NCBI RefSeq assembly: GCF_947623445.1 | Contig: NC_135248.1 | Coordinates: 12,781,820 to 12,845,819 of the forward strand | Origin: Clavelina lepadiformis | Taxonomy: Eukaryota > Chordata > Ascidiacea > Aplousobranchia > Clavelinidae | Reading direction: 5' to 3' | Length of the DNA stretch: 64,000 bases | Shown here: positions 13,052-63,100 of the stretch, piece after piece | How positions within the stretch are numbered: the first letter of the stretch is position 1 | How the letters are laid out: each line of letters begins with the position of its first letter | Notes under the pieces: generated by a model | Database searches by the model: none | What the model was told of the DNA's origin: nothing | The model's input: the letters and a program-made list of their open reading frames with translations, nothing else | Position numbers and translations under genes: made by a program

Positions 13052-13907
13052 TCTCAAATATAAACAAGCAATAAAAACCTAATTGTACTATGAGAGCCTC
13101 TGGGGTGTAAAGTTGACTATAGTTTAAGAACTTACTCTTTATGGCTTTGTTGTGCAATACTATAGTGATCATCGGCAAACTGTCATAGTGTCGAGATCTA
13201 AGCAACACAGGAAACATACGTTGGCCCAAAGCTTAGATTGGGAGAAAATATTTGACTTGTGATAAGCCTAAAGTTTTTCTGCTAATATTAATCTATCGGT
13301 CTCCTTTTCTAACACTTGTGATTGGTACGATTCTAATTCAGCTTCCGATTTGAAGAACCAAACTACCTTTGTTTGAGCCTGACTTATTTTAGCTCATAAA
13401 AGTTAGCCTAAAACATTTTGGTATCACTGGCACAGCAACCATTAGACCAGAACTAGCTTCCTGAGCGTACAACGGCAACCTTACGTCATTTAACGTTGCT
13501 CGATTTAGCAATGTCATACTGTGCTAAGACTTGGGTCATACCTTTCACCCACCACTCAAAAGCCGAGAGGAGAGTTCGCCTTCCAGATAGTGGGTAAAAG
13601 GATAGAATTGCATCCACGCGAAATAGCTTAATTGCATCCATGTGAAACTCACATAACTAATCACCTCATAAAATTTTAATTAGCTTTACAAGGTAATATT
13701 TATAAGTAAATCAGTTAAAAAGAGCTATCACTGTGCTCATGAATGCAAACGCGCAATACCTCGGTTACCAGGTAAAAGAATCTACAGTACAGCGTAGGCC
13801 TATTACCTGCTAAAGTTCGAAATCACTCGAGCAAGGCAAGACGTGACGAAGCACTTTTTTCGTCCTCTTTTGATTGGTGGATAAAAAGAATTTATTAATA
13901 AGTTGCC

Positions 13908-14526
13908 GACACCTCTCCTGTTTTTGTTTCTTTATTATCCTCCGCTCTTCGCGTTACTCATGGAAAATTACAACATGTCCCAAAGTTTGTTGATAAGTTG
14001 ATTTTTCCGAGTTGTTCTTGCTTGCTCTTCTAATTAATTTCCACATATTTTATAATTTACATTTCTTTGGAATCGAAAAGCCTTTTAATTCCAATATTTT
14101 ACAGCTATATTTAGAAGATTTATTGCTGCGTTTTGTAATTTTTGCTTTAAAATTGTTTGTTTTCTTGTTTACCTAACTACTATCCTAACACTCATCTTTC
14201 ACCGTTGTAGCACCACTGTAATTTACATTTTGCATGTTGTAAGCCTTTAGGGCTTTGCCATTTCTTTCACGTTGGTTGATTGTCTGTGAGCGTATTTCTT
14301 GTTTGACCAACCTACAACAAAGTTAACACCACAATTTTCGCTCCCTTCAGTCGATTGCAAAAAAATAAACAACACGTTATTGAAAGAAAACAAGAAGCCG
14401 CTCAAACTCCGCAAAAGCAATTTGTGTTATCATTATCAATAAACTTTAAGCGCGGTTGTACTGCCACTGATACCTAGCAGATGGAGCAAATTATAATAAA
14501 GAAACAAAGTCAGGAGAAGGGTCACG
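13908..14526. mobile_element. Inverted-repeat (foldback/MITE-like) element
   Basis: A 16-bp perfect inverted match joins 13923-13938 (TTTGTTTCTTTATTAT) and 14493-14508. Flanking bases also pair imperfectly (CTCTCCTG with CAGGAGAAG), and a second paired block joins AAAGTTTGTTGATAAG near 13982 with its complement near 14430-14455. The arms are therefore about 100 bp, diverged, around a core near 14200. There is no coding capacity. Part of the core and right half (about 14200-14370) is similar to sequence at about 41640-41860, so the family is repeated. The ends and target-site duplication are not resolved. Confidence 0.5.
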
Positions 14527-15617
14527 TTTTCTCGTCATAATAAACACTTCTGCCCAGTCATGATTGCAAGCTTTTTTCTGGACAACAGCTAAAATGGTTT
14601 TCATTCGTTTATGCTGAAATATGCGCGGTAACTACGCAAATATTATCTGCGACATACGTGCATCATGCGTATTTGAAGTAGGTTTACCATATGCACGTGC
14701 ATTTTATAGATGTAATCATTATTATTTTACAGAAAGTATTAGTTAGAAAGGAAAGTCGATTTTGTAGCCATAATTTCTTATTTGGAAAAGCAGGGCATGA
14801 TCTATTGGGCTGGCGTCGCAAATAAGGCTGTGAGAAAACTTTTCACACTTCACTTGTTCTCTTCTGACGAAAACATTTACCCATATGTTTGCTCTTCGCT
14901 CACAGTCGCGTAGTTTTTTATAGCAGTCTGTTTGCTGCCAACTTTTTGAATGAAGTAGTAAGTAAATAAAAGTGATTCATGGAATCTTCACAGTTCAGTT
15001 ATTTTTGTGAAAATATGACAGTTCACCTTCTGTAAAAACAGTTGTTGATTCTTTTTTGTGCTTGTGCATGCAGCCGAAACCATTTTGAAATGTACCTGTA
15101 AATGCTATAGCAGGGTAATGGATAGATCCTAATAAAGCTTATCTTCAAGAATGGAGTAAGCGTCGGTAATCCAATAACGCTTCCTCGAGTGCTTGTATTT
15201 ACTTTCTGCAGTAACGTGCAACAGGTCACATGACTGATGGCATAAATGAAGCGGGAAGTTACTGTAAACATCTTACCCATATGCTGTAGCAGTTATTGCT
15301 GTAGTAACTAGGTTATTCTTTGTTTAAACGCTTGAGGGCAAAGACAAAAAACAACATCCTGACAAAGTGAAATCAGCAATTAGACCGAATGCCATAGGTG
15401 TAACGACAAAGTTTTGGTTATTTGGAGTAAATCGGCCTGTAACTTATTATTTGTTGGCAGATAGTAAGCATTACACCAAAGATCTCCAACTATGTTCCGT
15501 GGTACCGCTTAGATCAGTGATCATGCCAGTGCAGCTCACTATACCGCCCAATTTGTCATCATCACTGATATGAACGGTTTGTAAGCTTTTTTGTGAGTTC
15601 ATGACTGAAACTTTTAC

Positions 15618-15660
15618 GTTTCGTATCCATATTTCGTATCCGTATTTCGTATTTCGTAAT
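15618..15660. repeat. Short tandem repeat, TTTCGTATCC type
   Basis: About four imperfect copies of an 8-13 bp unit containing ATTTCGTA lie in a row. This is a simple repeat with no apparent coding role. Confidence 0.7.
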
Positions 15661-16367
15661 TTTTTGCTGATCCAAGTGATTAGTAAACTTGGTGCTGGTT
15701 CAAGCAATTCACATATATTTTGGAGCAACCACTTATCTCAAAAGTTATGACATTTGTGAATTTTATTATTTATTTTATTGCCAGGCGCTACATTCAAGCA
15801 ATGCTTATAAAATAATTGCTGCTGTTTTGAAATATCATTCTTATCACTTTGTTTAATTAAATTAGAAACTTTAATTAAAATTACAACATGATTTATAAAA
15901 AACGAAAATCGTCAACACAATTACAGTAGGATAAAAGCAATTGCAACATATAATAAGAGGAGATTTTTCACATCAAACGCAAATAGATAAAAGTTTAATG
16001 TACAGTAGATGCTCAGTATTTACTGAAGGAACTGGTAAAACTGTTTATTAAAGAAAACATGTTTTAAATGAAACAATCATGCAAAAGTGGTTGTTTAACA
16101 AGCATTGTAAGTAGTTCGCTCAAGAAAATGATCGAACTGAAAAATGGTTTTAAAATGGTTATGTATAGAGTGTTACTGTTCACGAAAAAATCCTTTACAA
16201 AGTTCACCTTTAATTGAAACCTAACTCACAAAAAAATCACAGCAAAAATCAAAGGTAATTAAAACAAGAGCATGGGTAAGCATTAAAGAAATTTGTCATT
16301 ATAGTACTAAAACTAAAAGCAATTAAGCGAAAGACTTCTGCAAATGTTCAAGTCAAGAATTCAGTTT

Positions 16368-17195
16368 TTACCATTCTCGAACTTTTTTGTCAGACACAAA
16401 TTGACCATGTGGCTCAGTTGCTCCTTCTGGAAGCAGAGCCAAGTAAACTGGAGTTTCAGCGCCCTCGTCTGGCGATTTTGGTGCTTTAGAACCAGCCATG
16501 TCAGTACGAACCCATCCAGGACAACAAGCATTGAGCAAGATGTCGTTTTTACCTTGCTCTCTAAGCCATCTAGCGTGGATTCGACTCATGACCGTCACAC
16601 CTACCTTGGACATGCCATATGTTGTGTCAGGGTATCCGTGTTTTTGGTGTGTGCCTTCTTTTGCATACTTTATAAACTCATTCATTCGGTCAGTAAGCTC
16701 TTCTTCAGTGATGGTGTTGGAACGAAACACAGCTTGCAGCTCGGGACTGCATTTCTTCAGTGAAGATACACTAAGAAAACTGGACACATTCACAACTCTG
16801 CCCTTTGCTTTGATAATGGGAAGCAAAATACGAGAACCTTCTAACGTGCTAAAATAATTAGTCGCCAACGTTACTTTTGCTTGCTCTCCAAACGGTGTTG
16901 GGTCAGCATTTTTAAAAGCAATGCCAGCATTATTGACCAGTACGTCAATACCGCCGTATTTGTTCACCATATAATCCTTTAGTCGTTTTATGCTGTCCAC
17001 GCCATCAATGTCCAGTTGATGATATTTGACTTTGAGACCTTCACCTTCTATTAGTTTCACAGCTTCCTTGCCACGGTCGTCGTTTCTAGCTGTCAAGTAA
17101 ACGTCGCCATCGAATTTCTTGCACAAAGCGCGTACAATGGCCAGTCCAATGCCCTTGTTTCCGCCAGTTACAACAGCTACTTTAGTTCCAGACAT
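16368..17195 (-). CDS. CBR1-like: Carbonyl reductase (NADPH), CBR1-type SDR, array copy 2
   Basis: The closest paralogue of copy 1, differing at only a few positions, so likely the same NADPH-dependent carbonyl reduction. The ATG at 17195 (MSGTKVAVV) gives 275 residues; the in-frame triplet two codons upstream is GTG and was not used. GGNKGIG, NNAGIAFK, LATNYFSTL, VVNVSS and YGMSK are all present, as is CCPGWVRTDM. It ends GQFVSDKKVREW. A 309-bp hAT-type miniature element ends 84 bp before the ATG on this strand, so it lies in the promoter, 5' UTR or a 5' UTR intron of this copy. Its high identity to copy 1 suggests recent duplication or gene conversion. Confidence 0.95.
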   Translation of the reverse strand: MSGTKVAVVTGGNKGIGLAIVRALCKKFDGDVYLTARNDDRGKEAVKLIEGEGLKVKYHQLDIDGVDSIKRLKDYMVNKYGGIDVLVNNAGIAFKNADPTPFGEQAKVTLATNYFSTLEGSRILLPIIKAKGRVVNVSSFLSVSSLKKCSPELQAVFRSNTITEEELTDRMNEFIKYAKEGTHQKHGYPDTTYGMSKVGVTVMSRIHARWLREQGKNDILLNACCPGWVRTDMAGSKAPKSPDEGAETPVYLALLPEGATEPHGQFVSDKKVREW

Positions 17196-17279
17196 TCTCA
17201 CAGGTTACTAAAATTTTTCTGAAACAAATCCGAAAAAGTGATTTTGGTAGTAGGCCTAATATTAAAGATCGCTTTAATA

Positions 17280-17588
17280 CAGGGGCGGGTAACTTTTTCG
17301 GTCGGCGGGCCTGATATGAGAAAATGAAGTACTTGGCGGGCCGGATTCCTGAATCGATACATTAATCGTGTATTTATCCACCTATGCAAGGAATAAATCG
17401 TATTTAATGTAAACTTTAAGTTTTAAGCATAGAGACCAAAAACAGTATTTAATGAATATATTAACGAATAATGTACTTCAATAGTTGCTGAAGTCAAAAC
17501 TGAACTGAACTGCTGAACTGTCTGCGGGCCGCTCAAAATCCCGTCCCGGGCAGGGTCCGGCCCGCGGGCCGTATGTTGCCCACCCCTG
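17280..17588. mobile_element. hAT-type miniature DNA transposon (309 bp)
   Basis: The terminal inverted repeats start CAGGGGCGGGTAAC on the left and end GTTGCCCACCCCTG on the right. An exact 8-bp target-site duplication CTTTAATA flanks the element (17272-17279 and 17589-17596), as expected of the hAT superfamily. The subterminal parts are rich in GGCCCG/CGGGCC. There is no transposase sequence, so this is a nonautonomous derivative. The intact duplication suggests the insertion is not very old. Confidence 0.9.
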
Positions 17589-17596
17589 CTTTAATA

Positions 17597-18642
17597 GAAT
17601 AATTAGAATTAATTCATATGCGAACTCACAGTTTGTAACATCGCTTTGTTACCAGTCTGACCTGTCCTTGCCTGTTAAATAACTCAAACGATTGAATCTT
17701 ACTGGCTCGCTGGTAATATCTGAACTTCCATTCACGCGCAGCCAACAGTAAAAGCAAATATTTAATCAGTTTGTTTGCAAAACCTCACAATCGCAACCGA
17801 GTGGCGTTTGAAATTCAGTAATTGTTACGTCCCCGCTCACTTTTAGACGCTGGTCCACTTCAAAGTAAGCAGCACCTGTAGAAAACACATATCAATGGAA
17901 ATAATTTTCCCAAATACGGGCACTAAAAATGCGTCGTCATGAAAGAATTTCTTCCGTGCTGAGTCACGATCAAGTGACCTTTGAGTGTTTGATTTTGCTT
18001 GATCATGATGAACTGTTTATTTTCCTTTCTCATTACCTGCACTTTGTTCCTCTCCTCTTGAAGATAAGTTTGTCGGATCAAAATTTCGGCCATATTGCTT
18101 AAGTGCTTGTAACACTGTACTTTGAAGGTTTTACAAGAGCATTGAAGACCAAAGTTGCGTCAGACGAATGTAGTTTTTAGGAAAACTTCATGCACCTCAG
18201 CGTCATGAAAACCATTTTCGGTAATAATGAGCAATATTAATTCACAATTCCTGTTCAAAGGCGATTGCAAAATCTTTATTCAAAATTCCACCATAGGCAA
18301 TATTTTGTGTCAAAACCAAAACTGTTCTGCCCACTTTAGAGCGTTTCAACAAAGAAACATGAATGAATGAAAAGCCCATTACAAAACTCAGTGCAAAAGT
18401 GAATGATTATATTTACATAGGTAGCACTGGCAAGTGTGATATCCCTGCTTAAGGATAGCAATTGCGCTTAAGTTAAACATCTTCCGTTTGTCTCCAATAC
18501 AAAAACACATCATTCTATGGCTGTAACATAATTTAACAATGGTACAAGGTGGTCAATTATACAAGGATTTTGTTTTCAGCTTTCATTAGCATCATCTTTA
18601 GCACTTAAGGCTTTTTACAGGTGAAAAGTTAAAAATATAACT
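17597..18642. other. Spacer between array copies 2 and 3
   Basis: About 1 kb with no exon, reductase remnant or repeat that I can support. It should contain the 3' UTR of copy 3 at its right end and the 5' control region of copy 2 at its left end. Confidence 0.45.
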
Positions 18643-19473
18643 TCACCATTCTTGAACTTTTTTCTCAGATAAATATTGACCATGTGGCTCAGTTGCTCCT
18701 TCTGGAAGCAGAGCCAAGTAAACTGGAGTTTCAGCGCCCTCATCTGGCGATTTTGGTGCTTTAGGACCAGCCATGTCAGTACGAACCCATCCAGGACAAC
18801 AAACATTGAGCAAGATGTCGTTTTTACCTTGCTCTCTAAGCCATCTAGCGTGGATTCGACTCATGACCGTCACACCTACCTTGGACATGCCATATGCTGT
18901 GTTAGGGTATCCATGTTGCTGATGTGTGCCTTCTTTTGCGTATTGCACAAACTCATTCATCTTATCTATGAGCTTATTTTCCGTAATAGCGCCGGAACGA
19001 AACACAGCCTGCAGCTCAGGACTGCATTTCTTAAGCGCCATAGGGCTTACCATGCTAGATACATTCACTACTCTTCCTTTAGGTTTGATGATAGGTAGCA
19101 AAATCTTCGAAGCTTGAAGCGTTCCAAAGAAATTGGTTTTCATGGTGACTTTGGCTTGTTCGCTAAATGGAGCAGTGTCTTCCACTTTATAGGCAATACC
19201 AGCATTGTTAACCAAAACATCAATACCACCATATCCAGCTAGCATATCATCTTTTAGCTTTGTGATGCTGCCCACATCATCAATGTCCAGTTGATGATAT
19301 TTCACTTTGCCGAGTCCTTCACTTTGAATTTGCTTCAGGCCTTCTTGGCCGCGGCCAGAGTCTCTGGAAGTCAAGTAAACGTCGCCATCGAATTTCTTGC
19401 ACAAAGCGCGAACAATGGCAAGGCCAATGCCCTTGTTGCCGCCAGACACAACAGCTACCTTAGTACTAGACAT
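18643..19473 (-). CDS. CBR1-like: Carbonyl reductase (NADPH), CBR1-type SDR, array copy 3
   Basis: Intronless frame of 276 residues from the ATG at 19473. A splice acceptor-like TTGTAG lies seven bases upstream (TTGTAG|GTCACC-ATG), so a 5' UTR intron is possible. SDR motifs are complete: GGNKGIG, NNAGIAYK, MKTNFFGTL, VVNVSS, YGMSK, and CCPGWVRTDM. The first two thirds differ clearly from copies 1 and 2 (for example TSRDSGRGQEGLKQIQ against TARNDDRGKEAVKLIE), but the last 85 or so codons are nearly identical to them. All catalytic residues are retained, so it is expected to be an active NADPH-dependent carbonyl reductase, possibly with different substrate preference in the N-terminal half. Confidence 0.95.
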   Translation of the reverse strand: MSSTKVAVVSGGNKGIGLAIVRALCKKFDGDVYLTSRDSGRGQEGLKQIQSEGLGKVKYHQLDIDDVGSITKLKDDMLAGYGGIDVLVNNAGIAYKVEDTAPFSEQAKVTMKTNFFGTLQASKILLPIIKPKGRVVNVSSMVSPMALKKCSPELQAVFRSGAITENKLIDKMNEFVQYAKEGTHQQHGYPNTAYGMSKVGVTVMSRIHARWLREQGKNDILLNVCCPGWVRTDMAGPKAPKSPDEGAETPVYLALLPEGATEPHGQYLSEKKVQEW

Positions 19474-19859
19474 GGTGACCTACAATGAGGAATATATTCA
19501 AAAAAGTTGTTAAGAAAAGGCAATGAACTGAATACAAAAACAAAAGCTTTGTGTTTCAAAACTTTTACCATAGAATGAAAACAATTTAGTTCCTCATTTG
19601 CACAAAACCAAACAATGATAAAACAAGTACCATAAATTAACCGGCTATACAAGATCAGTCTGGGACCAAACATTGTCAGGAATAGACTAGCATGAAATTC
19701 TAAGCCCCGAATGTGTGCTATTTTGAGCATATTTTATACATTCTTCAAGCTCATCTTGAAGCCATCTCTCTGTAACAGCGTGAAATCAAAACACACAGTA
19801 CGTATCGAAACTACGTGACACCTCATCCGTTCCACACCCCAGCCTTTGAACTTGGTAGG

Positions 19860-20166
19860 CAGCAAATCTTCGAAGCTTTAAGTGCTCTGGATTGTTTCTG
19901 AGAAACAACCAACATCACCGTTTTCTGCCCAGATTTTATTATTTCTATCACTTTGTGCTTTCCACGTCATCAATATCCAGTTGATGGTATTTGACTTTGA
20001 GACCTTCACCTTCTATTAGTTTCACAGCTTCCTTGCCACGGTAGTCGTTTCTCACTGTCAAGTAAACGTCGTCATCGAATTTCTTGCACAAATCACAGGA
20101 AACGGCAAATCTAATGCAATTGTTGCCGCTAACAACCTGTACACTGGATGAGACAAAAATAGTCAT
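19860..20166 (-). pseudogene. Carbonyl reductase relic (N-terminal fragment)
   Basis: A decayed piece of an array member. From about 20150 on the minus strand it reads VQVVSGNNCIRFAV (against VAVVTGGNKGIGLAI), then CKKFDDDVYLTVRNDYRGK and EAVKLIEGEGLKVKYHQLD, ending near the DDVES position of intact copies. The glycine motif is damaged. A further short patch at about 19860-19895 resembles the SKILLPII coding segment of copy 3, so the middle of the gene has been deleted and the remainder lost. The fragment most resembles copies 1 and 2. Confidence 0.85.
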
Positions 20167-20569
20167 TATTAAACAGTTGTAAGAATATTAATTTGATTTG
20201 AAGAATTATCTCTTTATCCCAAATTATAATACAAAATTTTCGCTTACATAAGCAAAAAAATTGAGCAAAAAAATAAACACTTCCAACCCAAAGCTATTGT
20301 GAAAAGTTGATTCATTAAATATTCTAACATGTGCGTAAAATAAGACATAGATTTTAACAAGGATTTAGCGTTCAACCTGTCTGGGCATCTTTGCAAACTG
20401 CATAAAAAAGAAAAACTGGCCAGAACAAATAGAAGCATTAAGATGAAAACAAATTTAACAACACTAGCATACAAAATCACATGAAAGAAATGCGTTTAAT
20501 TTGTGTACCAACAAACATAAGAAAATTGCAAACACAAAATGTCAGTTGTACATAAGTTAACAATATAAG
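20167..20569. other. Spacer, nothing recognised
   Basis: About 400 bp between the relic and copy 4. It is AT-rich, with no coding exon or repeat seen. The right end is presumably the 3' UTR of copy 4. Confidence 0.45.
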
Positions 20570-21430
20570 TTACAAACTTTTAGATGTGTCCCACCAATGA
20601 TGTAAAGTTTCTTCAATTATAAACTCTCCATGCGGTGAGTTGGTTCCTTCTTCGAGTGAAGCCAACCGAATTGGGGTCTGTGCGCCCTCGTCAGGTGTTT
20701 TTGGGGCTCTGGGCCCACCCATGTCTGTTTGAACCCAACCCGGACAGCAGCAGTTCAGCAAGATGTCCTGTTTTCCGTGTTCTTTTAGCCAATTTGCATG
20801 AATTCGGCTCATAATCGTTACACCAATCTTAGACAACCCATAGGGAGCATCTGGTGATGTTGGGAACCCACGTTCATCAAGAGCATCTTCTTTTGCGTAT
20901 TTTTCAAAATCTCTCATTCGCTGTACAAGTTGTTCTTCAGAAATATTTTCCGAACGAAATTCAGCCTGCAGTTCGGGACTGCACTGCTTAAGGGCGTTAA
21001 CACTAAGAGAACTGGACATATTAACAACCCTTCCATTCTGCTTTATGATAGGAAGAAATGCCCTTGACATTTCTAACGTACTAAAAAAATTAGTCTGCAT
21101 AGTTGCCATAACTTGTTGTACGAATGGAGTGGTGTTGGCTTTTTTGAAAGAAATCGCTGCGTTATTGATTAAAACGTCCACGCCTCCATAATTAGCTAGC
21201 ATATCATTTTTCAAACGTCTTATGCTTGCGTTGTCGTCAATGTCAAGTTGATGATATTTCACATCAAGACACTCCTGGTTTAGAATTTGGTCTACAGCCT
21301 CCAATCCTTTAACATTGTTTCTTGCCGTCAAGTAAACAACACCATTGAAAACCTTGCTAAGACCACGAACTATTGCCAATCCAATTCCCTTGTTCCCACC
21401 AGTCACAATTGCTACCCTACTGCTCGCCAT
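20570..21430 (-). CDS. CBR1-like: Carbonyl reductase-like SDR, diverged array copy 4
   Basis: Intronless frame of 286 residues starting at the ATG at 21430 (MASSRVAIVTGGNKGIG). It has an acceptor-like TTTATCACAG shortly upstream, so a 5' UTR intron is possible. The catalytic residues remain: structural Asn in MQTNFFSTL, serine in VVNMSS, and Tyr/Lys in YGLSK. The NNAG motif is changed to NNAAI, with Ala for the conserved Gly. A short insertion precedes the active-site Tyr (DERGFPTSPDAPYGLSK), and the C-terminus is about ten residues longer than in other copies (ends HHWWDTSKSL). CCPGWVQTDMGG keeps the cysteine pair. Likely an active reductase with altered specificity; less close to CBR1 than copies 1-3. 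Confidence 0.93.
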   Translation of the reverse strand: MASSRVAIVTGGNKGIGLAIVRGLSKVFNGVVYLTARNNVKGLEAVDQILNQECLDVKYHQLDIDDNASIRRLKNDMLANYGGVDVLINNAAISFKKANTTPFVQQVMATMQTNFFSTLEMSRAFLPIIKQNGRVVNMSSSLSVNALKQCSPELQAEFRSENISEEQLVQRMRDFEKYAKEDALDERGFPTSPDAPYGLSKIGVTIMSRIHANWLKEHGKQDILLNCCCPGWVQTDMGGPRAPKTPDEGAQTPIRLASLEEGTNSPHGEFIIEETLHHWWDTSKSL

Positions 21431-21704
21431 AATTTTCTGTGATAAACAAAAAAAAACATTTCAACAAACGCTTAATTGCAATAAGGCTATGCAATATAAT
21501 GAAATATATCCATAACAACTCCATAACCAATATTTTTAAAAATAAGAAGAAAGTAATGCAGCTATAATGCATTTACTTTTAGTGTGACATACAAGCAAAA
21601 TTCAGCAAAAAGAGCAAGTACCAAGTATACAATACATTTTAGGCAATACACTGAATTTATATTGTTCTCACAGCAATACACAAACATATATATAAGTGCA
21701 TAAA

Positions 21705-22526
21705 CTACCATCGTCGAACTTTTTTATCTGACACATATTGACCATGTGGTTCAGATGTTCCTTTTGGAAGAAGTGCAAGATACACCGAAGTTTCAGCGCC
21801 CTCTTCTGGGCTTTTCAAAGCTTTTGGCCCACCCATATCTGTTCGTACCCAGCCTGGGCAACATGCATTCAGCAGGATGTTATTTTTACCTTGCTCTGAA
21901 AGCAACCGCGCTTGAATCCTGCTTAGAACAGAGACGCCAAGCTTAGAAAACTCATATGCACTGCCAGGTAGCCCATTTTCTTTCAGGGTGCCTTTTTCGG
22001 CAAAGTTAACATAATCATTCATGCGCATTATAAGCTGGTCTTCTGTGATAGAAGCAGAGCGGAATTCTTCTTGTAACTCAGTGCTGCATTGCTTCAATGC
22101 TCGAAGGCTTACAAAGCCCGCTATGTTAACGACACGCCCGTTTGACTTGATATGTGGTAGTAGTAGGTTTGAAACCTTCAAAGTGCTAAAAAAATTAGTA
22201 CCTAAGACATACTTTGCTTGTATCCCGATTGGAATTGTGTCTTTGCTTTTAACACCAGCGTTATTAATAAGAACATCAATCCCCCCATATGAATGAAGCA
22301 TGCTATCTCGAAAATTTTTAATACTGTTCTCGGAACCAATATCAAGTTGGTGATATTTAACGGGTAATCCTTCATCGCGGATTTTCTTCACAGCTTCTTG
22401 GCCACGATCTTCATTTCTTGAAGTCAGATAAACGTTCCCTTCAAATTTTGAACAAAGACTTCGAACAGTTGCTAATCCAATACCTCTGTTTGACCCAGTG
22501 ACAACTGCAACTCTACTAGCAGACAT
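21705..22526 (-). CDS. CBR1-like: Carbonyl reductase-like SDR lacking the catalytic serine, array copy 5
   Basis: Intronless frame of 273 residues from the ATG at 22526. It keeps the cofactor motif GSNRGIG, NNAGV, structural Asn (LGTNFFSTL) and the Tyr/Lys pair in YEFSK (Y191, K195). The VVNVSS motif of the other copies reads VVNIAG here, with the SS pair replaced by Ala136-Gly137, so the catalytic serine appears to be missing. The region after NNAG is two residues shorter than in the other copies. The frame is clean, which argues against simple decay. It may be a cofactor-binding protein with little reductase activity or a reductase using another residue, such as the serine three positions on. 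It is the most upstream member of the array. Confidence 0.92.
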   Translation of the reverse strand: MSASRVAVVTGSNRGIGLATVRSLCSKFEGNVYLTSRNEDRGQEAVKKIRDEGLPVKYHQLDIGSENSIKNFRDSMLHSYGGIDVLINNAGVKSKDTIPIGIQAKYVLGTNFFSTLKVSNLLLPHIKSNGRVVNIAGFVSLRALKQCSTELQEEFRSASITEDQLIMRMNDYVNFAEKGTLKENGLPGSAYEFSKLGVSVLSRIQARLLSEQGKNNILLNACCPGWVRTDMGGPKALKSPEEGAETSVYLALLPKGTSEPHGQYVSDKKVRRW

Positions 22527-25500
22527 TTTACAAAATACTTAAGTCTGTGTTTGCTTATGCTTCTAGGAAAGCAGGCAAATGATGACCAAATTTTCACAGC
22601 TCCCATTAAACAATTTAGTATTCTTAATAGTTATAGCGAGTTTAAAAATAGTTTATGAAAAGAAATGTCTCTCCTTCACCCTTTGCTTTGTATGGAATCA
22701 GAATCCTTACCCTTGGACAGAGGAAAGTCCTTGTGCAACTAAAACTTGGCCAGAAGATTGTAAATCCACAGCAATCATGCTTTGATCACTGAGTTTGTTG
22801 TTGTGTATTTTGCAATAAATATATTTATTTGTTTGTTGTTGCTTGCTTTGTCAATCAGTCAGTTTTAGATCTACCAGTAGCCTACTGTATTTAACGTTGG
22901 TGCCTCCCAGACTGTAGGGCATGGCTGTTTTCAGCAAGATCTTGCGTGCGTGCAAACAAAACAAACAAATATGACAATTGCAGGTGTGCAAGAATGTTTG
23001 GATGTTTGGATACATTTAGGTGTGCAATTACACAGTAATGTACACAGTATGGCTAATTCAATCTCTAACTCAATTAAAAATTGAGAGTGTAAAAGTTCTA
23101 TCCAAGCCATTAAGGGCAAAATTATGTACTTAAAGTGTGTCACTGTAGCTCATAAAAAACAGTACAGTACTACTGACTGCACCTATGCCAAACTCATCAG
23201 TCTGGGATGCCTGTGAACAGCATTTATTAATTATAATAGTATAAATAGTATAAACATAATTAAAAGACTTAATGCAACCACGCTACAGTATTAAGCAAAA
23301 ACACAGCCAATAATATTATAATAAGCTAATCCAAATTCAAAGATTATTTTAAAAACCCTCAAATAAACCATCATCTATCAGGACCATCAAAGGTTATACT
23401 TGGAAAGTTTACTTTTAATCAACCTGATAAATGAGTCAACGCCAACTTTATTCATGTAAACGATGCATTGCGGATTGATTAATTTTAACATTAACATTAA
23501 TTTTAGCGCATAAGCCAACTTTCCAGTCGTCCAGTAAAAGTCCAAAAACTCTCGGACGCATGTAAGATACTGCACACAGCATTGAAAATATAAAACACAA
23601 GCACAAATTAGACGAGAGAATACGACCTATTGGCTTAGATTAAGCCTAACTGTTTACCGGAATTTCATAACAGAAACACGACCGCCCCGCCAGGAAAGCG
23701 GGTTATAAAACAGTTTCTCATATGTTTGTATAAATGACCTTTCAACCTAAAAGCTTGTTATATAACAAAAATATGAATCGACGTTTATCTTAGGGAAATC
23801 ACCCAAGTTGAAATTTATTATAAATTCTACAAATTTACATTTGGAAATATTTATATCAGCAGAAAATCGAACCGCGGTGTAAAACAATTTAACACCGGTT
23901 TAGGTTTTACAAAATATTTTACCGGTTTTACTCCGGTCCAGGTTTACATCAGGTTCACACATTCATTCCCCTCCGGGTTTAGTTTCAGCAAGCTTGCTAA
24001 TATAAGGTTCGCTCGGGGTTCGAATGACATTATCCAGCGAAGTACTTTTCTAAATTTCTTCAAATGCACTGCCCAAGTAGCAATTCGTTATCATAAGGAA
24101 TTTCGTCATTAGTGGGTATTTCTTAATTTAGGTTTTCTTTGTTTTGAATTAGTCAAAAGAAACACGTTTTCTATAACTTTTGGATGGAATTATGATACTG
24201 AACAAATGGTTACAATTAAGGTTCGACTCCGGTCTGTTCTTTTTCTCTTAGTCTTCAGTGGTTCAGGTTCGGTTTAGTTGCAGACAATTTTAATACATTG
24301 GGTGCTGGTTCGGTTTGCTGATTTGGTGAAAATTCCAATCTCTACTGTGACTGTGTATCTGCAAAAATTTAGATATGACATATTTTGATAACAATACTAA
24401 CAAAATGATAGTAGGCTATAAAGATGCAGAGATGAACTTGGATTCAAATATCGCATAATAGTAATGATCGCATTTTATGGGCGTTAAAAAACAAAGTAGC
24501 CTAATGTTAAATAGTGGTGGTAATTTTCTTCCATCTGCCTATGGTTCAGTAGTATCACAGTGCACAATATAAACCTACCGTTAAAATGAGGTACTGTACA
24601 AGCCAGTAAACAAAAGAATTTGTTTTGCTTCACGCTACATGATTTGTCTGTCAGAGGTTGGAATTTAATTATCGAGGCATCTAAATTTCAAAAATTTGGA
24701 GATGCATCAGGTCGGTGTGTTGCTTTTTTCGAAAGAAAGATTTAAAAATTTATTCGTCCAACTTTTAACTCAGTCTTTTTTTCAAACAAGCATTCGAAAA
24801 ATCCAGTCAACAATGCGTAAAGAAAAGAAAAATGGAAAAGTTTAGCGCTTGGTACTCCGTCTATAAACAGAAGAACAACTGCTTGTGAAAGTATGTGAAG
24901 ACCGTTTTCACGTCAAAAGGTAAACCGACAATAGTTTGAATTTTGAAGTTTACGAAACATTTTTTCAGCGTTTAAATTAAACAGAATAATCATTAAAAGA
25001 ACCCGGACTAGTTTTCGTGTGACCAACGTCTACTTTGCTAGACGTTGTAAAACTTCTTTCAACTTGTAGCAATATGGTGTCACAATCTCAGCTTAGTGAC
25101 GTTTCTGTAAGTTGGTGAAATAGCCGAACAGTTCTGATTTTAATTGCTGTATTTTGTAATGGTGTACATAGGAAGTTGTTCTAAAAAATATTAAAGCATG
25201 CTGTAAATTTGAATTTATGATGAACCAATTTCATGGGCTATTGCTTATTTTTGCGCTCTGAAAGTTTTAAGAAATGTTGTGATATAGCACTTTCTCGGAG
25301 GTGACGAAAATTTGCTACTTCGGTCTACGTGCGACATTGGCCAAGATTTTGCGATCACTGACGTCTCGCTTTTTACCACAAATAGCAATTGATTACGTGA
25401 CCACGTCATATACGTTAAAGGGATGTCTATTTCAGAACATCAAATCGAATAAATTGAAAAAATATTTTTATTTTTTAATTATTTGAAATTGAAAGCTTGT

Positions 25501-44090: not shown

Positions 44091-44956
44091 CTATAGAAGT
44101 TTAAACTTCTTCAACTTTCTGTAAAGTACGAATAAAAGATAAGCGCAGGAAATGAACAAGAGCCAATCAGTACTTTCTTCATATTTTACAGGCAAAGGGC
44201 CAACGTAATCTTGCTCAGTGATTCCATAAACATTTCTAGTTATGCAATTCTTTTCATTTTCACATATGTCAGCATTTCCTGCGTTGAGCTCCATAAACAA
44301 TCCTAAAAATTTTACGAGACTATCCATGTCCACAACCGAATCATTGTATCTTCCGATTGCCCTTACACCATTGAAGATGATGAGATTAGGAACGGCGATT
44401 GTGCCATACCTACAATTAATTCAAAATACCATGAAGTTAAATAGTGTTTTGGAGAATGTGAGCAGCTTAAAATTTACAATGACCTGTTACTCACTCAAAC
44501 CATAATGGCAAGCATTTACAAAATGAGTACATATTTTTAAACGTATAAGAACTGTATTATTTTTATAACTCATGGAACTTACTTTAATTGGCTTGAAGCG
44601 AAGATGTTGAATTGTGATTTAACCTCAATAGCTATAAATGGTACCCCAGTAAAAGTACGGCTCAACGCATTGAAATAAGGTGCCATTTGCATTGAAAGCG
44701 GGCACCAAAAGGCATAAAATAAAACAACAGCACACATGCCGGATGAATGCGTGTCTAAATGAGCAAGTAGCTGCGTGGAATTGAACAATAGTACTTCTGA
44801 AAACGTGCTTCGGTCATATGTCATGTTATGACAGAGCAACTTGTCGTCTGTTGAATTTATTGGAGCATTGCTATGGATGTTATTGGCCAAATCAGCAGAA
44901 CACAATTTATTTCCGTAATATTCTAACTCAACTGGGCAAATGTTAGAGGAATTCAT
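44091..44956 (-). CDS. TXNDC15: TXNDC15-type thioredoxin-like membrane protein (5' end unresolved)
   Basis: Two exons, 44956-44583 and 44409-44091, join in phase to give 230 residues. They match the C-terminal part of human TXNDC15, a single-pass endoplasmic-reticulum or ciliary membrane protein needed for transition-zone function. The thioredoxin-like fold shows VVLFYAFWCPLSMQMAPYF, FNALSRTF, then YGTIAVPNLIIFNG with the cis-proline. As in human TXNDC15, the active site has a single cysteine (WCPLS) instead of CxxC, so redox activity is doubtful. The segment VGPLPVKYEESTDWLL leads into the C-terminal transmembrane helix (LLFISCAYLLFVLY) and a short basic tail RKLKKFKLL. The ATG at 44956 directly follows an acceptor-like TTTATCCAG and no signal peptide is seen, so at least one 5' exon is probably missing from this model. 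Confidence 0.87.
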
Positions 44957-45353
44957 CTGGATAAAGATACGAAACAATATAAGTTTTTATTCAAATGTTG
45001 ATAAAATTATAGTACGTCAATTTAATAAATGTAACGTTTCCGATAAATTAAATTTCTTTTCCATTTATTTTTAAATAATCTTTAAATAAGCTCAAGTTTG
45101 GGATATACTTCATTAAGGTGAGGTTTGGGGTAATGGAGACCTATTCGAGCAATTACTGGGAAGCTAAGTTTATAAAAAGTCTTCACCATGGTAGAAAAGA
45201 ATCTATTGCACAATCGTACAAAAATTATAATTATGTGACAAATAGGTGGCAGGGTACTTGCATGCAAATGGCCTTCATGGTTGTGCTTCTATCATATAGA
45301 CACAACACAAACCTATGAATGCGTTACACTAATCATTTATTGTGAACAGCAGG

Positions 45354-50394: not shown

Positions 50395-52532
50395 ATGAGA
50401 TCAGATTTTTTGATGAATTGTTTTTTGCTTTTTACTGCGACAAGTTGCTTCGAAATCGCTGAAAAACCAGGAAACTGTGTCCTTCCGATCGATGGAAATG
50501 ACAACAAAAGCATGTTTCTAGTGAGCGATTTCTGTGGGAAGAATGCGTCACAAGTTAATGATGAAAACAAGAGAGCGTCCACTCTGGATTATTTGTCCTG
50601 GCTCAAAAACATCGGTGACAACAAGTCATGTCATTCCAACTTCAGGATAAATAATTTACTCAAGAAAGAATGTCGAGAAATGAAATTTGATTTGTCCGTT
50701 TACCACAAAGTCATTTCTTCTCAGATCTGTGGAAAATACGATGCCGACATCTTACCAAGAAATTGCCCGTCTAAGCCAAACCATAACCAGTTGTTTGGTG
50801 AAAATTACGAACAAAATATTTCGTACCCATGTAGGTTGTATCTGTTCGTTCAAAACTTTATACAATGCACGCGACAACTAAATGTAACAGGTTCAATTCA
50901 ACGAAACCATAGTGACGTTCGGTATATTTTCTACAAGGAAAAAATTTACGAAGACATTCCATTTTGTTTTCCTTTCGTTTGTCCATATTACGAGTCTTCG
51001 GATCTCGAAGAAAAACTCAGCTCCACACTTATTGGGAAAACGCTTTTTGATTGCATGCCAAGTTCCTGTCAGCTTGCCCATTACGTAATCGCTGTGGTCG
51101 ATGCGTTTATGGCTTTCTTGACGGTTGTTGTGAACAGTCTTATTCTCGTTGTTGCTGTGAGGACCAAGCACTTCAGTTGTTCGCACGGGTAGGGTATGTA
51201 GGGTTTGTTCTGTTCATGTTGAAAGTAAAAGGGTATAGTTATTTACAGCTTCGTGGAAACAAATTGTCATAAACATTAAAACTTGTAATTATATTTATAT
51301 CGTGTTTAAATTAATATTTCTGATCATACATTGAAATGAAAACTAATTTGCTACAAAGTACACCGTATTTTAGAGGTATTCGTTTTTAAAAAAAACCTGA
51401 TTTTAAAACAACAGCCAATATATGCCTGTCTTTTTACCTTACTTTTGTAAGCAAAGAAATACAATTAATTCCAATGGACGAGTTTCGCGTCACACTGACA
51501 CTAAATTTTTTCTCAAATTGTTAGATACTTCATTGTGTCCTTGGCAGTAGCTGACCTCATAGTGGGACTGATTACAGAACCGCTCATGGTGTACAGTCAC
51601 TTAAGACAGAGCAAGTTACTTTTTGCTGAAGCAGATCTGCACAACGATTGGTACTGCATAGTTGCCGGATTCTTTACAAACGTTCCTCTTTGCGCATCTT
51701 TACTTGCGTTAATAGGCTCTTCGGGGTTCAGGTTTGTGTGCGCATGATCTTTAACCACAATTTGAGCATATGGTGTTAGATTGTTGTCAAGATACATACA
51801 TACTATACATGCTTTTATGGTGGTTTTGCAGAACGTAAGACTACATAAGCCAGGTGAGTAGTTTCCCTAAAAGCTGATCGTTACACTTTCGACAGGTACG
51901 TTGTAATTAGTAAACCCGTCTCCTATTGGAACCACCGTGGTGGAATGAAGAAGCACGCCTTGCACATCACTATAGCGATTTGGATTTTCTCCGCAATTTT
52001 TGGCCTGATACCAGTACTAGCCCCCTCTGACCGCTACAGGATACATTTCGTCGGCATGACACTGTCAGTTAAAATGGATGAGTTTTACATATACCACATG
52101 ACACTAACGACTGGCTTAGTATCGCTGTGGATTCTGACTATTTTGCTCAGGCTAAAATTGAAACGCTATGGCAAGCAACGTTTACGGCAGATGACCCGGA
52201 AATATAGCCTTCGAACCACAAAAGAGAATAGCTTTCAAACCACAAGAGAGACGGCAGTTTGTGATTTTCTGAGAGTTATTGTAACAGTATTTACAATTTG
52301 CTATCTGCCCTTAGTAATTACGCAGTCATTTGCCCGCCTCCAAAGTATTGATTTGAAGAAACTCCCGGAATCGTTTGATGTTATGAGTAACTATGCCTGG
52401 AATGTTTGCATGTTTCTTTCATCTCGCTTTGTTCTTGGAAACTCGTTTGCAAACTTCTTTATTTACCTAATTAAAGACAAAGGCTTCAAAAAAGCCTTGT
52501 TTACAGCTACAAGCTTGGGCAAGCTTCGATGA
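50395..52532 (+). CDS. Class A (rhodopsin-like) GPCR with a cysteine-rich ectodomain, three exons
   Basis: Exons 50395-51188, 51525-51731 and 51896-52532 join in phase to give 545 residues. Residues 1-20 look like a signal peptide. Residues 21-226 form an ectodomain with 12 cysteines (28, 47, 79, 93, 112, 124, 146, 158, 191, 196, 220, 225) and six N-glycosylation sequons. I do not recognise this domain; a stretch around YPCRLYLFVQNFIQC only faintly recalls a Frizzled-type domain. Seven membrane segments follow with class A marks: N in TM1 (VVNSLIL), SLAVADLIVGL in TM2, Cys before TM3 (DWYC), FRYVVISKP for DRY, Trp in TM4, CYLP for CWxP in TM6 and NSFANFFIY for NPxxY in TM7. The second extracellular loop has no cysteine to pair with the TM3 one. 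The tail is short and basic. Ligand unknown. Confidence 0.87.
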
Positions 52533-52538
52533 ATTTGC

Positions 52539-52544
52539 AATAAA
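52539..52544 (+). terminator. Polyadenylation signal AATAAA of the GPCR gene
   Basis: AATAAA lies six bases after the TGA stop of the receptor gene. A cleavage site would be expected 10-30 bases further on. The very short 3' UTR implied is plausible but unproven. Confidence 0.5.
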
Positions 52545-60100: not shown

Positions 60101-63100
60101 TTAGGCCAGTGTTTCCAAAAGATTGGTAATGACCGAAATATGAGTTATCATCATTGTACTGATGGGCCAAAATTATGTTTTCCACATAGACAACCATTGA
60201 TATTGTAGTGGCTAAAAATGATATACTGTATACAGTTATGTTTAGGTTTTCAAGCAATGTGTAAAACTGTCTTACAATGTCAAACTACTGCAGTGCACCT
60301 CTACTCTTTTTGCTTTAGCTAACTATTTAATTAAGAGTTACCTTTGCTCACAAAATCATTTTAGCAAGTGCGCACATCAGACTAATCAGACAAATTAAGA
60401 ACGAATGCAGTGTGGTTTTGCTTTTAAAACGACATTTTTGTCCTTAACTTGGTGCAATTGTCTGTTATGATCATCTCTCTACACTCACATCTCTATTTAT
60501 GTCAAAAATGTTGGCGATAATGGCATGATAAGGATTCAGAGTTTTGCATTCCCCTCTTTTTCACAGATTCAAGACATCTTGGAACTTCATCATGAAGATT
60601 TAACTAAGGTCAACATGGCTAACAGTAGTTCAGTTCAAGCTTATCTCACTGCTGTTCGTGCAGCCAGGCAGGCGGACAAGAAAACGCTGTCAAAAATGAT
60701 GAAGGATAAAGCCAATGAAGATATCAGGTCGGTCTTAATCCTCAATTTACTTTAAAACCTTTAGGTCACCTAAATATAGCTCTTCTTGCCTGTAATGTGA
60801 CATGGATGTATTTAAGACATTTTCACAGATCATTACAGTAAGCTTGAAGCCCTGGTTTGATCTGATGTAGACATAACCTCCATCAGTAAAATCACATCAG
60901 AAGTATCTCACAATCTCTATCTCATCTTGCTTTTCTGTTCAGACTGACCCTAATCGACGTGCTTGCCGCTACTCAAACCCCTGCATCTCAAGCTGTTCTC
61001 ATGAAGAATTTGGATTTTACTAAAACGGAGAATACGGGAGACATCGAACGTGCTCTCTCAGGGATTGCTTTCTCGTCGCATCCATCGGAACTTGCTCTGA
61101 AAGATCTTGCTGTGAGTATCCTCCATTTCAATTATCACACAGGTCCTTGAGTGTCAGACTTGCGAGTGCTGGTTAGGGTTTGAATGTTTGTTATATTTGA
61201 TGTTTTTGGTTACTAGTTTTATAACCTGTGGTAGCGCTAAATGAAACCCATAACATAGGGGTGCCCCACATGTGTATGACACACCTGTGTTGTAATAACC
61301 CAACCGAACCAGAGATAATGCTAAAGTTAATAAAATTATTTTGATATTCTCGATGTTTTAGGATAAATTTCTTTTCAAAATTTATAAATTTAAGAAATGA
61401 CCATGGATGTAGGACTTGATTTTTATCACTTGTTTGGAGTTCAAAGGTTTTGAGTTTTGGGTCATGTTTGGGATTAAAGTACGACTACAAATATCATATT
61501 TCTCACATTTTACAGAAAGTATTTAAAGGAAAAATTGGGAACCCAAAGATTAAGGAGACAGTAGCCCTTGCCATTGGTGCTGTTCTTAATAAGTTTTGCA
61601 GAATAAAAGAGGGAAATTGCAAGCGTAAGGTTTGTCTTAATAGTGAAAACATTGCTCTTAAAGTAGCTTAACTTTGTATAGGACAGACTTCATAGTACTT
61701 TTATTTGAATAACGTTTCTTGACTGCATAGTGTTTGTGAGATCGAGAAATTGATTTGCTTTTCTAGGTAAAAGTGGCGATGGTTAAACTATTTCCATTTT
61801 CATGGCTATATAAGTTCTGTGTTAGCTTTGTTCTGATATTCTTAGATTTAATTTGTCTTAAACAATGTCTCTTGTTGTTTATTGTTATTAACTCGCTCCA
61901 TATATCTGTACCAAAACCAAAAGTAATGTGATGTCAATGTAGGTTGTAAAGGAAGTCCGAGACATGATGCTTCAGGGTTTAAAAGAAGCGGAGAGTGAAG
62001 ACGACCAAACCCTTTACATCCACTTTGTGAGAAACTCAGCCCAGCCTGGCTTCATACCACAGCTCCTTCATTATGCTGAGAATAGCGCGTACCCCCTTGT
62101 GCACCACCTAGCGATCACATCACTCGGAGTGTACGACAATTCCCAGTTAAATAAGGACGTCATTCCGGTTATGAGTCGAATTTTCCACCAGAATTGGAAG
62201 AAATATGAAAGCACAGTCCGCTCGGCTGCAGCTAATCAGATCCTCATGGCCGATCCATCTGAGCGCGACGTTCAGAACCTGGTCCTGTCGCTTCCGGAAC
62301 TCAAGTCCAGGGAACTGGCCAATTTCATCTACGCACGCATAATGGATCTTATTAAGACCGGTCATTCATCCAGGTATGTCGGGTGCAACGTTGATTATGA
62401 CGCAATAAGGACGTTTGAATGGCTGGACGTAGATGCAGATGCTTTGAATTAACTCTTTGCGGACAAAGATTTGTTCGTGAATACTGTCATTGTTTGCTAT
62501 GAGCCTATAACGATGGAAAGAAACCTTGCCTATCGATTTGATAGCGTGTAATTGACAGACGGTAATTATGTTATCTGCTGAAAATTTTATAACGCAACTT
62601 CTGTTTTCTAGACCTACCTTGCTGAAGGTATTGCAAGACAGATCATACGGAAATTACTGGACTTTAGCGCAAGCTGGTATGGCGTCCGCGTTCACCGGTT
62701 ATATTTTTAAGTGAGTATTAACAACGCCTACAAATAAGTAGGCGCCTTTATATTCTGCCTTTCATTTATGCAGCGTTTTTCCGGAGCACATGGACGTTCC
62801 CACATTATACCGCGTGAAAGTGAACGTAAAAATTGCACTAAAATACTTCTGTTGGAAAATGCGCTCATACGTGTTCAGTGACTGCGGCTCAAATGGTGAA
62901 AAATCATCAGGAAATTACAACCTTGCATGAACTTTTCTCAAAAAAAAAAGTCAAAAATGTACATCCTTAAACCATGCTCGATCAAACGTACGCTCATCGA
63001 CTATAGGACCACGTGGCACTAAACAGATACAACTAACAAACTTCGTCGCATCATATAATTACGAATTAATGTTTAGTGGCACGGAATCTCACGGAACCTA

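What the first reader, a model, noticed from the sequence alone, without database searches (positions are those of the whole stretch)
50395..52532. Class A GPCR with an unassigned 12-cysteine ectodomain
The seven-helix part carries rhodopsin-family marks, but it is preceded by about 205 residues with 12 cysteines and six sequons, encoded with TM1 in a single exon. The TM3-side cysteine is kept while the second extracellular loop has none, so the usual loop disulfide cannot form; the TM3 cysteine may pair with the ectodomain. I do not know a described class A subfamily with this layout. It could be a tunicate-specific receptor type.
Basis: partly seen in the sequence, partly recalled or inferred. 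Interest (0 to 1): 0.72.

Follow-up and report, generated by a model that had tools for sequence, protein, structure and literature searches.

The report
New ectodomain-bearing sea-squirt receptor family
The gene is a cell-surface receptor of the rhodopsin class with a cysteine-rich outer domain that matched no known domain in the libraries searched, and it belongs to a family of at least 21 such receptor genes in the same sea-squirt genome.

Summary
Window 50395-52532 encodes a 545-residue three-exon receptor: 7tm_1 over the helices, a preceding ectodomain with 12 cysteines and six sequons, C309 at position 3.25, no cysteine in ECL2. It is not a one-off. Separate trees of ectodomain and helices largely agree, so the parts evolved together. 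The ectodomain matches nothing in Pfam or, convincingly, in the PDB by sequence. The family lacks the TM3-ECL2 disulfide (ECL2 cysteine 0 of 21; C3.25 2 of 21) and Pro7.50 (0 of 21). Best reading: a lineage-expanded class A subfamily whose disulfide-bonded ectodomain recognises the ligand. The link of this gene's ectodomain to the 16-gene main clade is through intermediates. Ligand, fold, transcripts and presence in other tunicates are untested. New variant of a known kind.

The parts
50395..51188 (+). exon 1: putative signal peptide, ectodomain and TM1
   Evidence: open frame with in-frame stop upstream; donor GG|GTAGGG, same codon and phase in two paralogues
50395..50454 (+). putative signal peptide (residues 1-20, approximate)
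   Evidence: hydrophobic N-terminus seen in the sequence; cleavage site not predicted by a tool
50455..51078 (+). ectodomain, residues 21-228, 12 cysteines, six sequons
   Evidence: related to ectodomains of paralogues
51189..51524 (+). intron 1 (phase 2, in the first intracellular loop)
   Evidence: GT-AG, same codon and phase in C5:8.66 Mb and C1:27.41 Mb
51525..51731 (+). exon 2: TM2-TM3, ends within the codon of R334 of the FRY motif
51655..51657 (+). codon of C309 (position 3.25)
   Evidence: 25 residues before R334; Cys present here in 2 of 21 family members
51732..51895 (+). intron 2 (phase 2)
   Evidence: GT-AG, same codon and phase in two paralogues
51896..52532 (+). exon 3: TM4-TM7, short tail, stop
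52539..52544 (+). AATAAA, possible polyadenylation signal just after the stop
   Evidence: read directly; function inferred

Best explanation
The gene encodes a class A (rhodopsin-type) G protein-coupled receptor of a lineage-expanded subfamily defined by an N-terminal, cysteine-rich ectodomain of about 190-240 residues. Shown by computation: the ectodomain is constrained coding sequence, related ectodomains occur in at least 21 genes, and in each of these it stands just upstream of the same type of helix bundle. Inferred: a signal peptide puts the ectodomain outside; it folds on internal disulfides, its last four cysteines (C191, C196, C220, C225) forming a knot on top of TM1; it binds an extracellular ligand, most likely a peptide or protein, and passes the signal to the bundle, which keeps N1.50, D2.50, R3.50, P6.50 and Y7.53 and so probably couples to a G protein. 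Because no member has an ECL2 cysteine, the ectodomain and, in most members, a long ECL1 probably take over the role of the extracellular lid.
For: 7tm_1 E=9.7e-22. Paralogues with the same layout: C5:8.66 Mb 52% (E=5.8e-59) and C1:27.41 Mb 29% identical (E=0.0034) in the ectodomain; in reverse the C1:27.41 Mb ectodomain finds C5:8.66 Mb at 4.3e-5 and the window at 9.4e-5. 15 of 15 genome matches of the TM4-7 exon at E<=0.01 lie at loci that carry the ectodomain. 21 loci with ectodomain exon followed by co-oriented helix exon(s). Cys columns: C93 and C112 21 of 21, C124, C191 and C225 20 of 21, C47 and C158 19 of 21, C196 17 of 21, C220 16 of 21. Window ectodomain against a C1:27.41 Mb profile 23.1 bits, 0 of 2000 shuffles reach it, also with Cys held fixed. 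Trees of ectodomain and helices share the main groups. Helix motifs: N1.50 21 of 21, D2.50 21 of 21, R3.50 20 of 21, P6.50 19 of 21, Y7.53 21 of 21. Coding constraint on exon 1.
Against: The window ectodomain is only weakly linked to the 16-member main clade directly: 5.2 bits, 12 of 2000 shuffles reach it; its sister C5:8.66 Mb -1.0 bits, 528 of 2000; a profile of these two finds C6:6.56 Mb at only 2.7 bits, 104 of 2000; hhalign of the two-row profile against the main clade gave probability 0.9%. The link runs through C1:27.41 Mb, C9:15.41 Mb and C6:6.56 Mb, two of them long branches. A relative by its helices (C1:20.26 Mb, L073) shows no full ectodomain in the 1.2 kb upstream, so the ectodomain may not go with every relative of the bundle; the other helix matches outside the 21 were not examined. 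The window gene has FRY for DRY, no Pro7.50 and Tyr for Trp6.48, so G-protein coupling is not assured. No transcript, ligand, fold or binding data; the AlphaFold run without an alignment was useless (mean pLDDT 38.6).
Confidence: 0.62

Rival explanations
1. The ectodomain is a structural or trafficking cap (folding, surface delivery, or tethering of the bundle) and the ligand is a small molecule bound inside the helices, as in amine receptors, whose sequences are the nearest in the PDB.
For: Nearest PDB chains of the helix region by sequence: dopamine D2 receptor with the window protein (E=3.4e-9), 5-HT1A receptor with a 7-row family profile (E=2.2e-27). The ectodomain evolves faster than the helices between the window gene and its sister: 51% against 65% identity.
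Against: Nearness to amine receptors is weak for the single sequence and common for generic class A profiles (recalled). In two tandem arrays the ectodomain after C93 is kept nearly identical (95-99%) while the helices differ (65-86%), which may point to a shared task of that part, though gene conversion alone could do it.
Confidence: 0.23
2. The ectodomain is a far-diverged copy of a known extracellular domain (Frizzled-type cysteine-rich domain, NRF-type domain, class B1 hormone-binding domain) that sequence profiles no longer recognise. This concerns origin and fold and does not exclude the best explanation.
For: Ten or so cysteines and a P-F-C-x4-C motif recall such domains (recalled, from no call).
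Against: No family above chance in Pfam for the 9 and 17 members scanned; profile searches of the PDB give as best only mitochondrial ribosomal protein S15, E=0.018 and 0.0022, taken as chance.
Confidence: 0.3
3. Chance open frame: exon 1 is not part of the receptor and the real receptor starts in TM1 or elsewhere.
For: No transcript was seen.
Against: Ectodomain and TM1 share one open exon in five family members, the splice positions and phases agree in the three genes examined, Cys columns are conserved, dN is below dS, and 21 loci repeat the order.
Confidence: 0.02
4. C309 in TM3 forms the missing extracellular disulfide with an ectodomain cysteine such as C146.
For: C146 and C309 occur in the same 2 of 21 genes.
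Against: Those two are sister genes (100/99 support), so this is one event, and C321 and C456 have the same distribution. Ectodomain Cys are even (12) in both, leaving C309 odd unless a Cys at the signal-peptide border is kept.
Confidence: 0.15

Closest known systems
Ciona LDLRR-GPCRs, 'Unclassified LGR-like' and 'Other Rhodopsins' (Kamesh et al. 2008, PMC2396169; passages seen)
   Same: Ascidian class A receptors, some lineage-expanded, some with a Cys-rich ectodomain on a rhodopsin-type bundle; 14 'Unclassified LGR-like' had no recognisable N-terminal domain, 23 'Other Rhodopsins' fitted no subfamily
   Different: LDLRR-GPCRs carry LDL-A repeats, which Pfam does not find here. Whether the two unnamed Ciona groups include this family was not testable
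Relaxin / LGR / glycoprotein hormone receptors
   Same: Class A bundle with a large ectodomain and a Cys-containing hinge before TM1 (recalled)
   Different: No leucine-rich repeat or LDL-A match
Class A receptors without the TM3-ECL2 disulfide, such as S1P receptors (recalled)
   Same: No C3.25-ECL2 pair
   Different: Those have no such ectodomain (recalled); here the absence holds for all 21 members
Class B1 and adhesion receptors
   Same: An ectodomain does the ligand recognition or tethering (recalled)
   Different: Helix bundle here is 7tm_1; no GPS/GAIN or hormone-receptor domain match

Membership tests
Class A (rhodopsin) GPCR | match to 7tm_1 over the helices | tested here: met
   E=9.7e-22, 78.1 bits against cut-off 30.5; the three relatives scanned also match 7tm_1 best, one of them passing the cut-offs of the nematode chemoreceptor models Srx and Srsx as well
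Class A (rhodopsin) GPCR | N1.50, D2.50, R3.50, W4.50, P6.50, Y7.53 | tested here: met
   all present in the window protein
Class A (rhodopsin) GPCR | DRY acidic residue 3.49 and Pro7.50 of NPxxY | tested here: not met
   F at 3.49 in the window gene, C5:8.66 Mb and C1:27.41 Mb; NFFIY in place of NPxxY; Pro7.50 absent in 21 of 21. Both positions vary within class A (recalled), so this lowers typicality rather than membership
Class A (rhodopsin) GPCR | C3.25-ECL2 disulfide | tested here: not met
   ECL2 Cys 0 of 21, C3.25 2 of 21; some class A receptors lack it (recalled)
LGR / RXFP / ascidian LDLRR-GPCR | leucine-rich repeats or LDL-A modules in the ectodomain | tested here: not met
   no Pfam match in the window ectodomain nor above chance in 17 of 21 members scanned
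Adhesion GPCR | GAIN/GPS and secretin-type bundle | tested here: not met
   only 7tm_1 matched over the whole protein
Frizzled-type cysteine-rich domain | Fz profile match | tested here: not met
   not among the Pfam matches of 17 of 21 members; structural relation not tested
NRF (nose resistant to fluoxetine) N-terminal domain | NRF profile match | tested here: not met
   not among the Pfam matches of 17 of 21 members
Tunicate-specific receptor type | present in other tunicates, absent outside | not testable with these tools
   only the window's own genome was searched as a genome; PDB sequences were the only other animal sequences compared

The most novel reading that the evidence does not exclude
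A previously unnamed extracellular domain with a new fold defines an ascidian class A receptor subfamily in which the ectodomain, not ECL2, caps and controls the bundle. Tandem arrays and gene conversion of the distal ectodomain keep a common recognition surface while the N-terminal half and the helices diverge, as expected of an expanding sensory or self/peptide-recognition repertoire.
Probability: 0.3. Interest if true: 0.75.

Novelty: new variant of a known kind. Interest (0 to 1): 0.55.

Why it matters
Large folded ectodomains are rare in class A receptors, and those known are mostly leucine-rich-repeat or LDL-A types (recalled). A whole subfamily with an unassigned ectodomain and without the usual TM3-ECL2 disulfide, in the sister group of vertebrates, would be another route by which class A receptors acquired a recognition domain, and supplies concrete candidates for unidentified chemosensory or peptide receptors of ascidians.

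Tried and rejected
Fold of residues 19-264 (exon 1) without an alignment: mean pLDDT 38.6, so no fold search was made.

Pfam on the ectodomain: none for the window; scattered single-member matches elsewhere, best E 0.012, rejected as chance. NCBIfam: scattered single-member matches, best E 0.0047, rejected. PDB profiles: ribosomal protein S15, E=0.018 and 0.0022, rejected: an intracellular protein, and the aligned stretch does not keep the family's cysteines except one. For some searches I gave 17 of the 21 ectodomains (four near-duplicates, C5a1, C5a3, C2b and C2d, left out); for, 7 of 21 helix regions; for, 4 of 21.

Direct proof of homology between the window ectodomain and the 16-member main clade failed and is claimed only through intermediates.

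In the 21-row alignment (printed output partly cut) the row of C5:8.66 Mb holds a few residues from its intron ends, in the first and second intracellular loops; one search gives the corrected protein. Joins of the other members were set by eye at open frames, not by a gene finder. Ectodomain pieces of C1:9.85 Mb and C8:3.08 Mb were joined over presumed introns, and C4, C6:1.36 Mb and C7 show no clear first exon; C4 and C8 are two of the five genes with an odd cysteine sum. A first alignment had cut C4 and C7 short, ended with a printing error, and was replaced. Three further places (C6:0.126 Mb, C5:8.994 Mb, C1:22.713 Mb) are fragments or carry stops and were left out of the 21.

Literature: the listings (20 of 34 shown; 12 of 21 shown) showed no title or abstract opening about this ectodomain; the full texts were not read, and only open-licence PMC is held, so this is weak evidence of novelty.

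Full report
What is there. Window 50395-52532 on the + strand encodes a 545-residue protein from three exons, 50395-51188, 51525-51731 and 51896-52532. Pfam 7tm_1 covers residues 247-509 with E=9.7e-22. Residues 21-228 hold 12 cysteines and six sequons. C309 is 25 residues before R334, so it is the class A position 3.25 (numbering recalled), and there is no cysteine in ECL2.

Where it comes from. The nine largest contigs seen, C1 to C9, have 28.78, 26.53, 25.73, 25.07, 24.62, 20.77, 20.45, 19.51 and 15.73 Mb, against 28.79, 26.54, 25.74, 25.07, 24.62, 20.77, 20.45, 19.51 and 15.73 Mb for the Clavelina lepadiformis assembly kaClaLepa1.1 (PMC10884593, passages seen). The copy held is 209.1 Mb in 95 contigs against 210.1 Mb in 102 scaffolds in the paper. 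The window is C9:12781820-12845819.

Is it more than a stray open frame. A genome search with the ectodomain found two further genes: C5:8.66 Mb, 52% identical, E=5.8e-59, and C1:27.41 Mb, 29% identical, E=0.0034. Both have the same three-exon layout, with both introns in phase 2, GT-AG and at the same codons. Between the window gene and its C5 sister dN is below dS in the ectodomain (NG86 0.35/2.30, YN00 0.40/1.23) and in the helices (0.23/2.22, 0.25/1.61).

A family. The TM4-7 exon as query gave 15 matches at E<=0.01 out of 26 candidates scored, and the 15 all lie at loci where an ectodomain exon stands upstream. Searches with two of those ectodomains gave 25 and 23 matching stretches at E<=1. 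From the loci held I counted 21 places with an ectodomain followed, on the same strand, by class A helix exon(s), on C1 to C9, plus three fragments or stop-bearing copies left out. This is a lower bound, since the search scores only the best candidates. Some lie in tandem arrays: three on C1 at 22.70-22.72 Mb, three on C5 at 2.53-2.56 Mb, four on C2 at 5.58-5.61 Mb.

Shared ectodomain. In the 21-row alignment C93 and C112 are present in 21 of 21, C124, C191 and C225 in 20, C47 and C158 in 19, C196 in 17 and C220 in 16. C196 and C220 are lost together, as Gln and Thr, in four genes of one clade, which suggests that they pair; this is one event, and C8:3.08 Mb has lost C220 alone, which speaks against it. 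Tests against 2000 shuffles: a profile of C1:27.41 Mb finds the window ectodomain at 23.1 bits (0 of 2000, also with cysteines held in place); the 16-member main clade finds C1:27.41 Mb at 24.3, C9:15.41 Mb at 17.2 and C6:6.56 Mb at 37.4 bits (0 of 2000 each). The same main-clade profile finds the window ectodomain only at 5.2 bits (12 of 2000) and its sister at -1.0 (528 of 2000), and a profile of the window gene and its sister finds C6:6.56 Mb at only 2.7 bits (104 of 2000). In the genome search the C1:27.41 Mb ectodomain finds the window at E=9.4e-5, and the C9:15.41 Mb ectodomain finds C6:6.56 Mb at 0.011. So homology of the window ectodomain to the main clade is established through intermediates, not directly.

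Co-evolution. Trees of ectodomain and helices, built apart, agree on the main groups: window + C5:8.66 Mb (100/99 in both), then C1:27.41 Mb (83/71 ectodomain, 100/100 helices), C9:15.41 Mb (85/70; 96/91), C6:6.56 Mb as the next branch (85/70; 96/91), and 16 others together (98/99; 100/100). The ectodomain tree has long branches on C9:15.41 Mb and C6:6.56 Mb, its program warns that such joins may be false, and it is the weaker of the two.

Gene structure. In five of the 21 (window, C5:8.66, C1:27.41, C9:15.41, C6:6.56 Mb) ectodomain and TM1 share an open exon; in 16 the ectodomain lies in its own exon(s), ending just before TM1.

Helix bundle. N1.50 and D2.50 21 of 21, R3.50 20 of 21, W4.50 19 of 21, P6.50 19 of 21, Y7.53 21 of 21. 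Pro7.50 is absent in 21 of 21 (for most NxxIY in place of NPxxY). Position 3.49 is Phe in the window gene and two relatives. ECL2 has no Cys in 21 of 21; C3.25 is present only in the window gene and its sister. The stretch aligned to window residues 288-309 (ECL1) is 22 residues in those two and 48-55 in 15 of 21. By sequence the nearest PDB chains are amine receptors.

The TM3 cysteine. Ectodomain cysteines are even in number in 19 of 21 genes, and 12 in both genes with C309; with the loops added the sum is even in 16 of 21. C146 is likewise confined to those two genes, so a C146-C309 bond is possible, but the two are sisters and C321 and C456 share the same distribution.

A relative without the full ectodomain. 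A search with ectodomain plus helices of C6:6.56 Mb gave 55 matches. The best helix match outside the 21 (C1:20259711, E=1.5e-12) was fetched: its frame has the family's NSxWNxxIY motif and four cysteines before TM1 that resemble C191-C196-C220-C225, but no ectodomain match in the 1.2 kb upstream. Other helix matches outside the 21 were not examined.

What the ectodomain is. No Pfam family for the window, or above chance for the 9 and 17 members scanned. PDB profile searches: only a ribosomal protein at E=0.018 and 0.0022, taken as chance. A fold from the window sequence alone failed (mean pLDDT 38.6). So it is unassigned; whether the fold is new is open.

How it probably works. Inference from anatomy: a signal peptide delivers the ectodomain outside; internal disulfides fold it; the four distal cysteines sit immediately before TM1 and tie it to the bundle; a ligand, more likely peptide or protein, binds it and shifts the bundle, which retains most core switch residues. 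The lid that ECL2 usually forms is probably replaced by ectodomain plus ECL1. Shown: layout, homology, constraint. Inferred: all of the mechanism.

Relation to known work. Kamesh et al. 2008 (PMC2396169, passages seen) report in Ciona 14 LDLRR-GPCRs lacking leucine-rich repeats, 14 'Unclassified LGR-like' without recognisable N-terminal domains and 23 'Other Rhodopsins'. The present family could be among the last two; no Ciona sequence was at hand to test it.

Verdict. A real, well-supported class A subfamily with its own ectodomain, for which I saw no description in the listings searched; an ordinary receptor class with an unassigned module. Interest 0.55.

Noticed in passing
G000 C5:2534560-2558401 and C2:5590106-5605688 (among loci L015, L017, L019, L021, L027-L029, L032, L033, L037): In three genes of each of these two arrays the 3' part of the ectodomain exon is nearly identical (dS 0.03-0.10) while its 5' part (dS 0.38-1.31) and the helix exon (dS 0.27-1.71) have diverged: the mark of gene conversion of the distal ectodomain. 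The pair tested from the C1:22.7 Mb array does not show it (3' dS 0.55, 5' 0.20, helices 0.19).
   Followed up: partly
L073 (G000 C1:20258300-20261000), frame from 1226: A related class A gene with the family's NSxWNxxIY TM7 motif has only a short N-terminus in this frame, with four cysteines resembling C191-C196-C220-C225 before TM1; no ectodomain match lies in the 1.2 kb upstream.
   Followed up: partly
G000 C1:22712903-22713500 (L038, L043): A copy with many stops inside the ectodomain, between two tandem members with open frames.
   Followed up: no
window 12224-22538, - strand: Five open frames in tandem that look like short-chain dehydrogenases; one was scanned, adh_short E=1.4e-32.
   Followed up: no
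window 61943-62452, + strand: Open frame matching Vitellogenin_N (E=3.3e-8), a piece of a lipid-transfer-type protein.
   Followed up: no
window 44579-44986, - strand: Open frame with a weak thioredoxin match (E=1.6e-4, below Pfam's cut-off).
   Followed up: no
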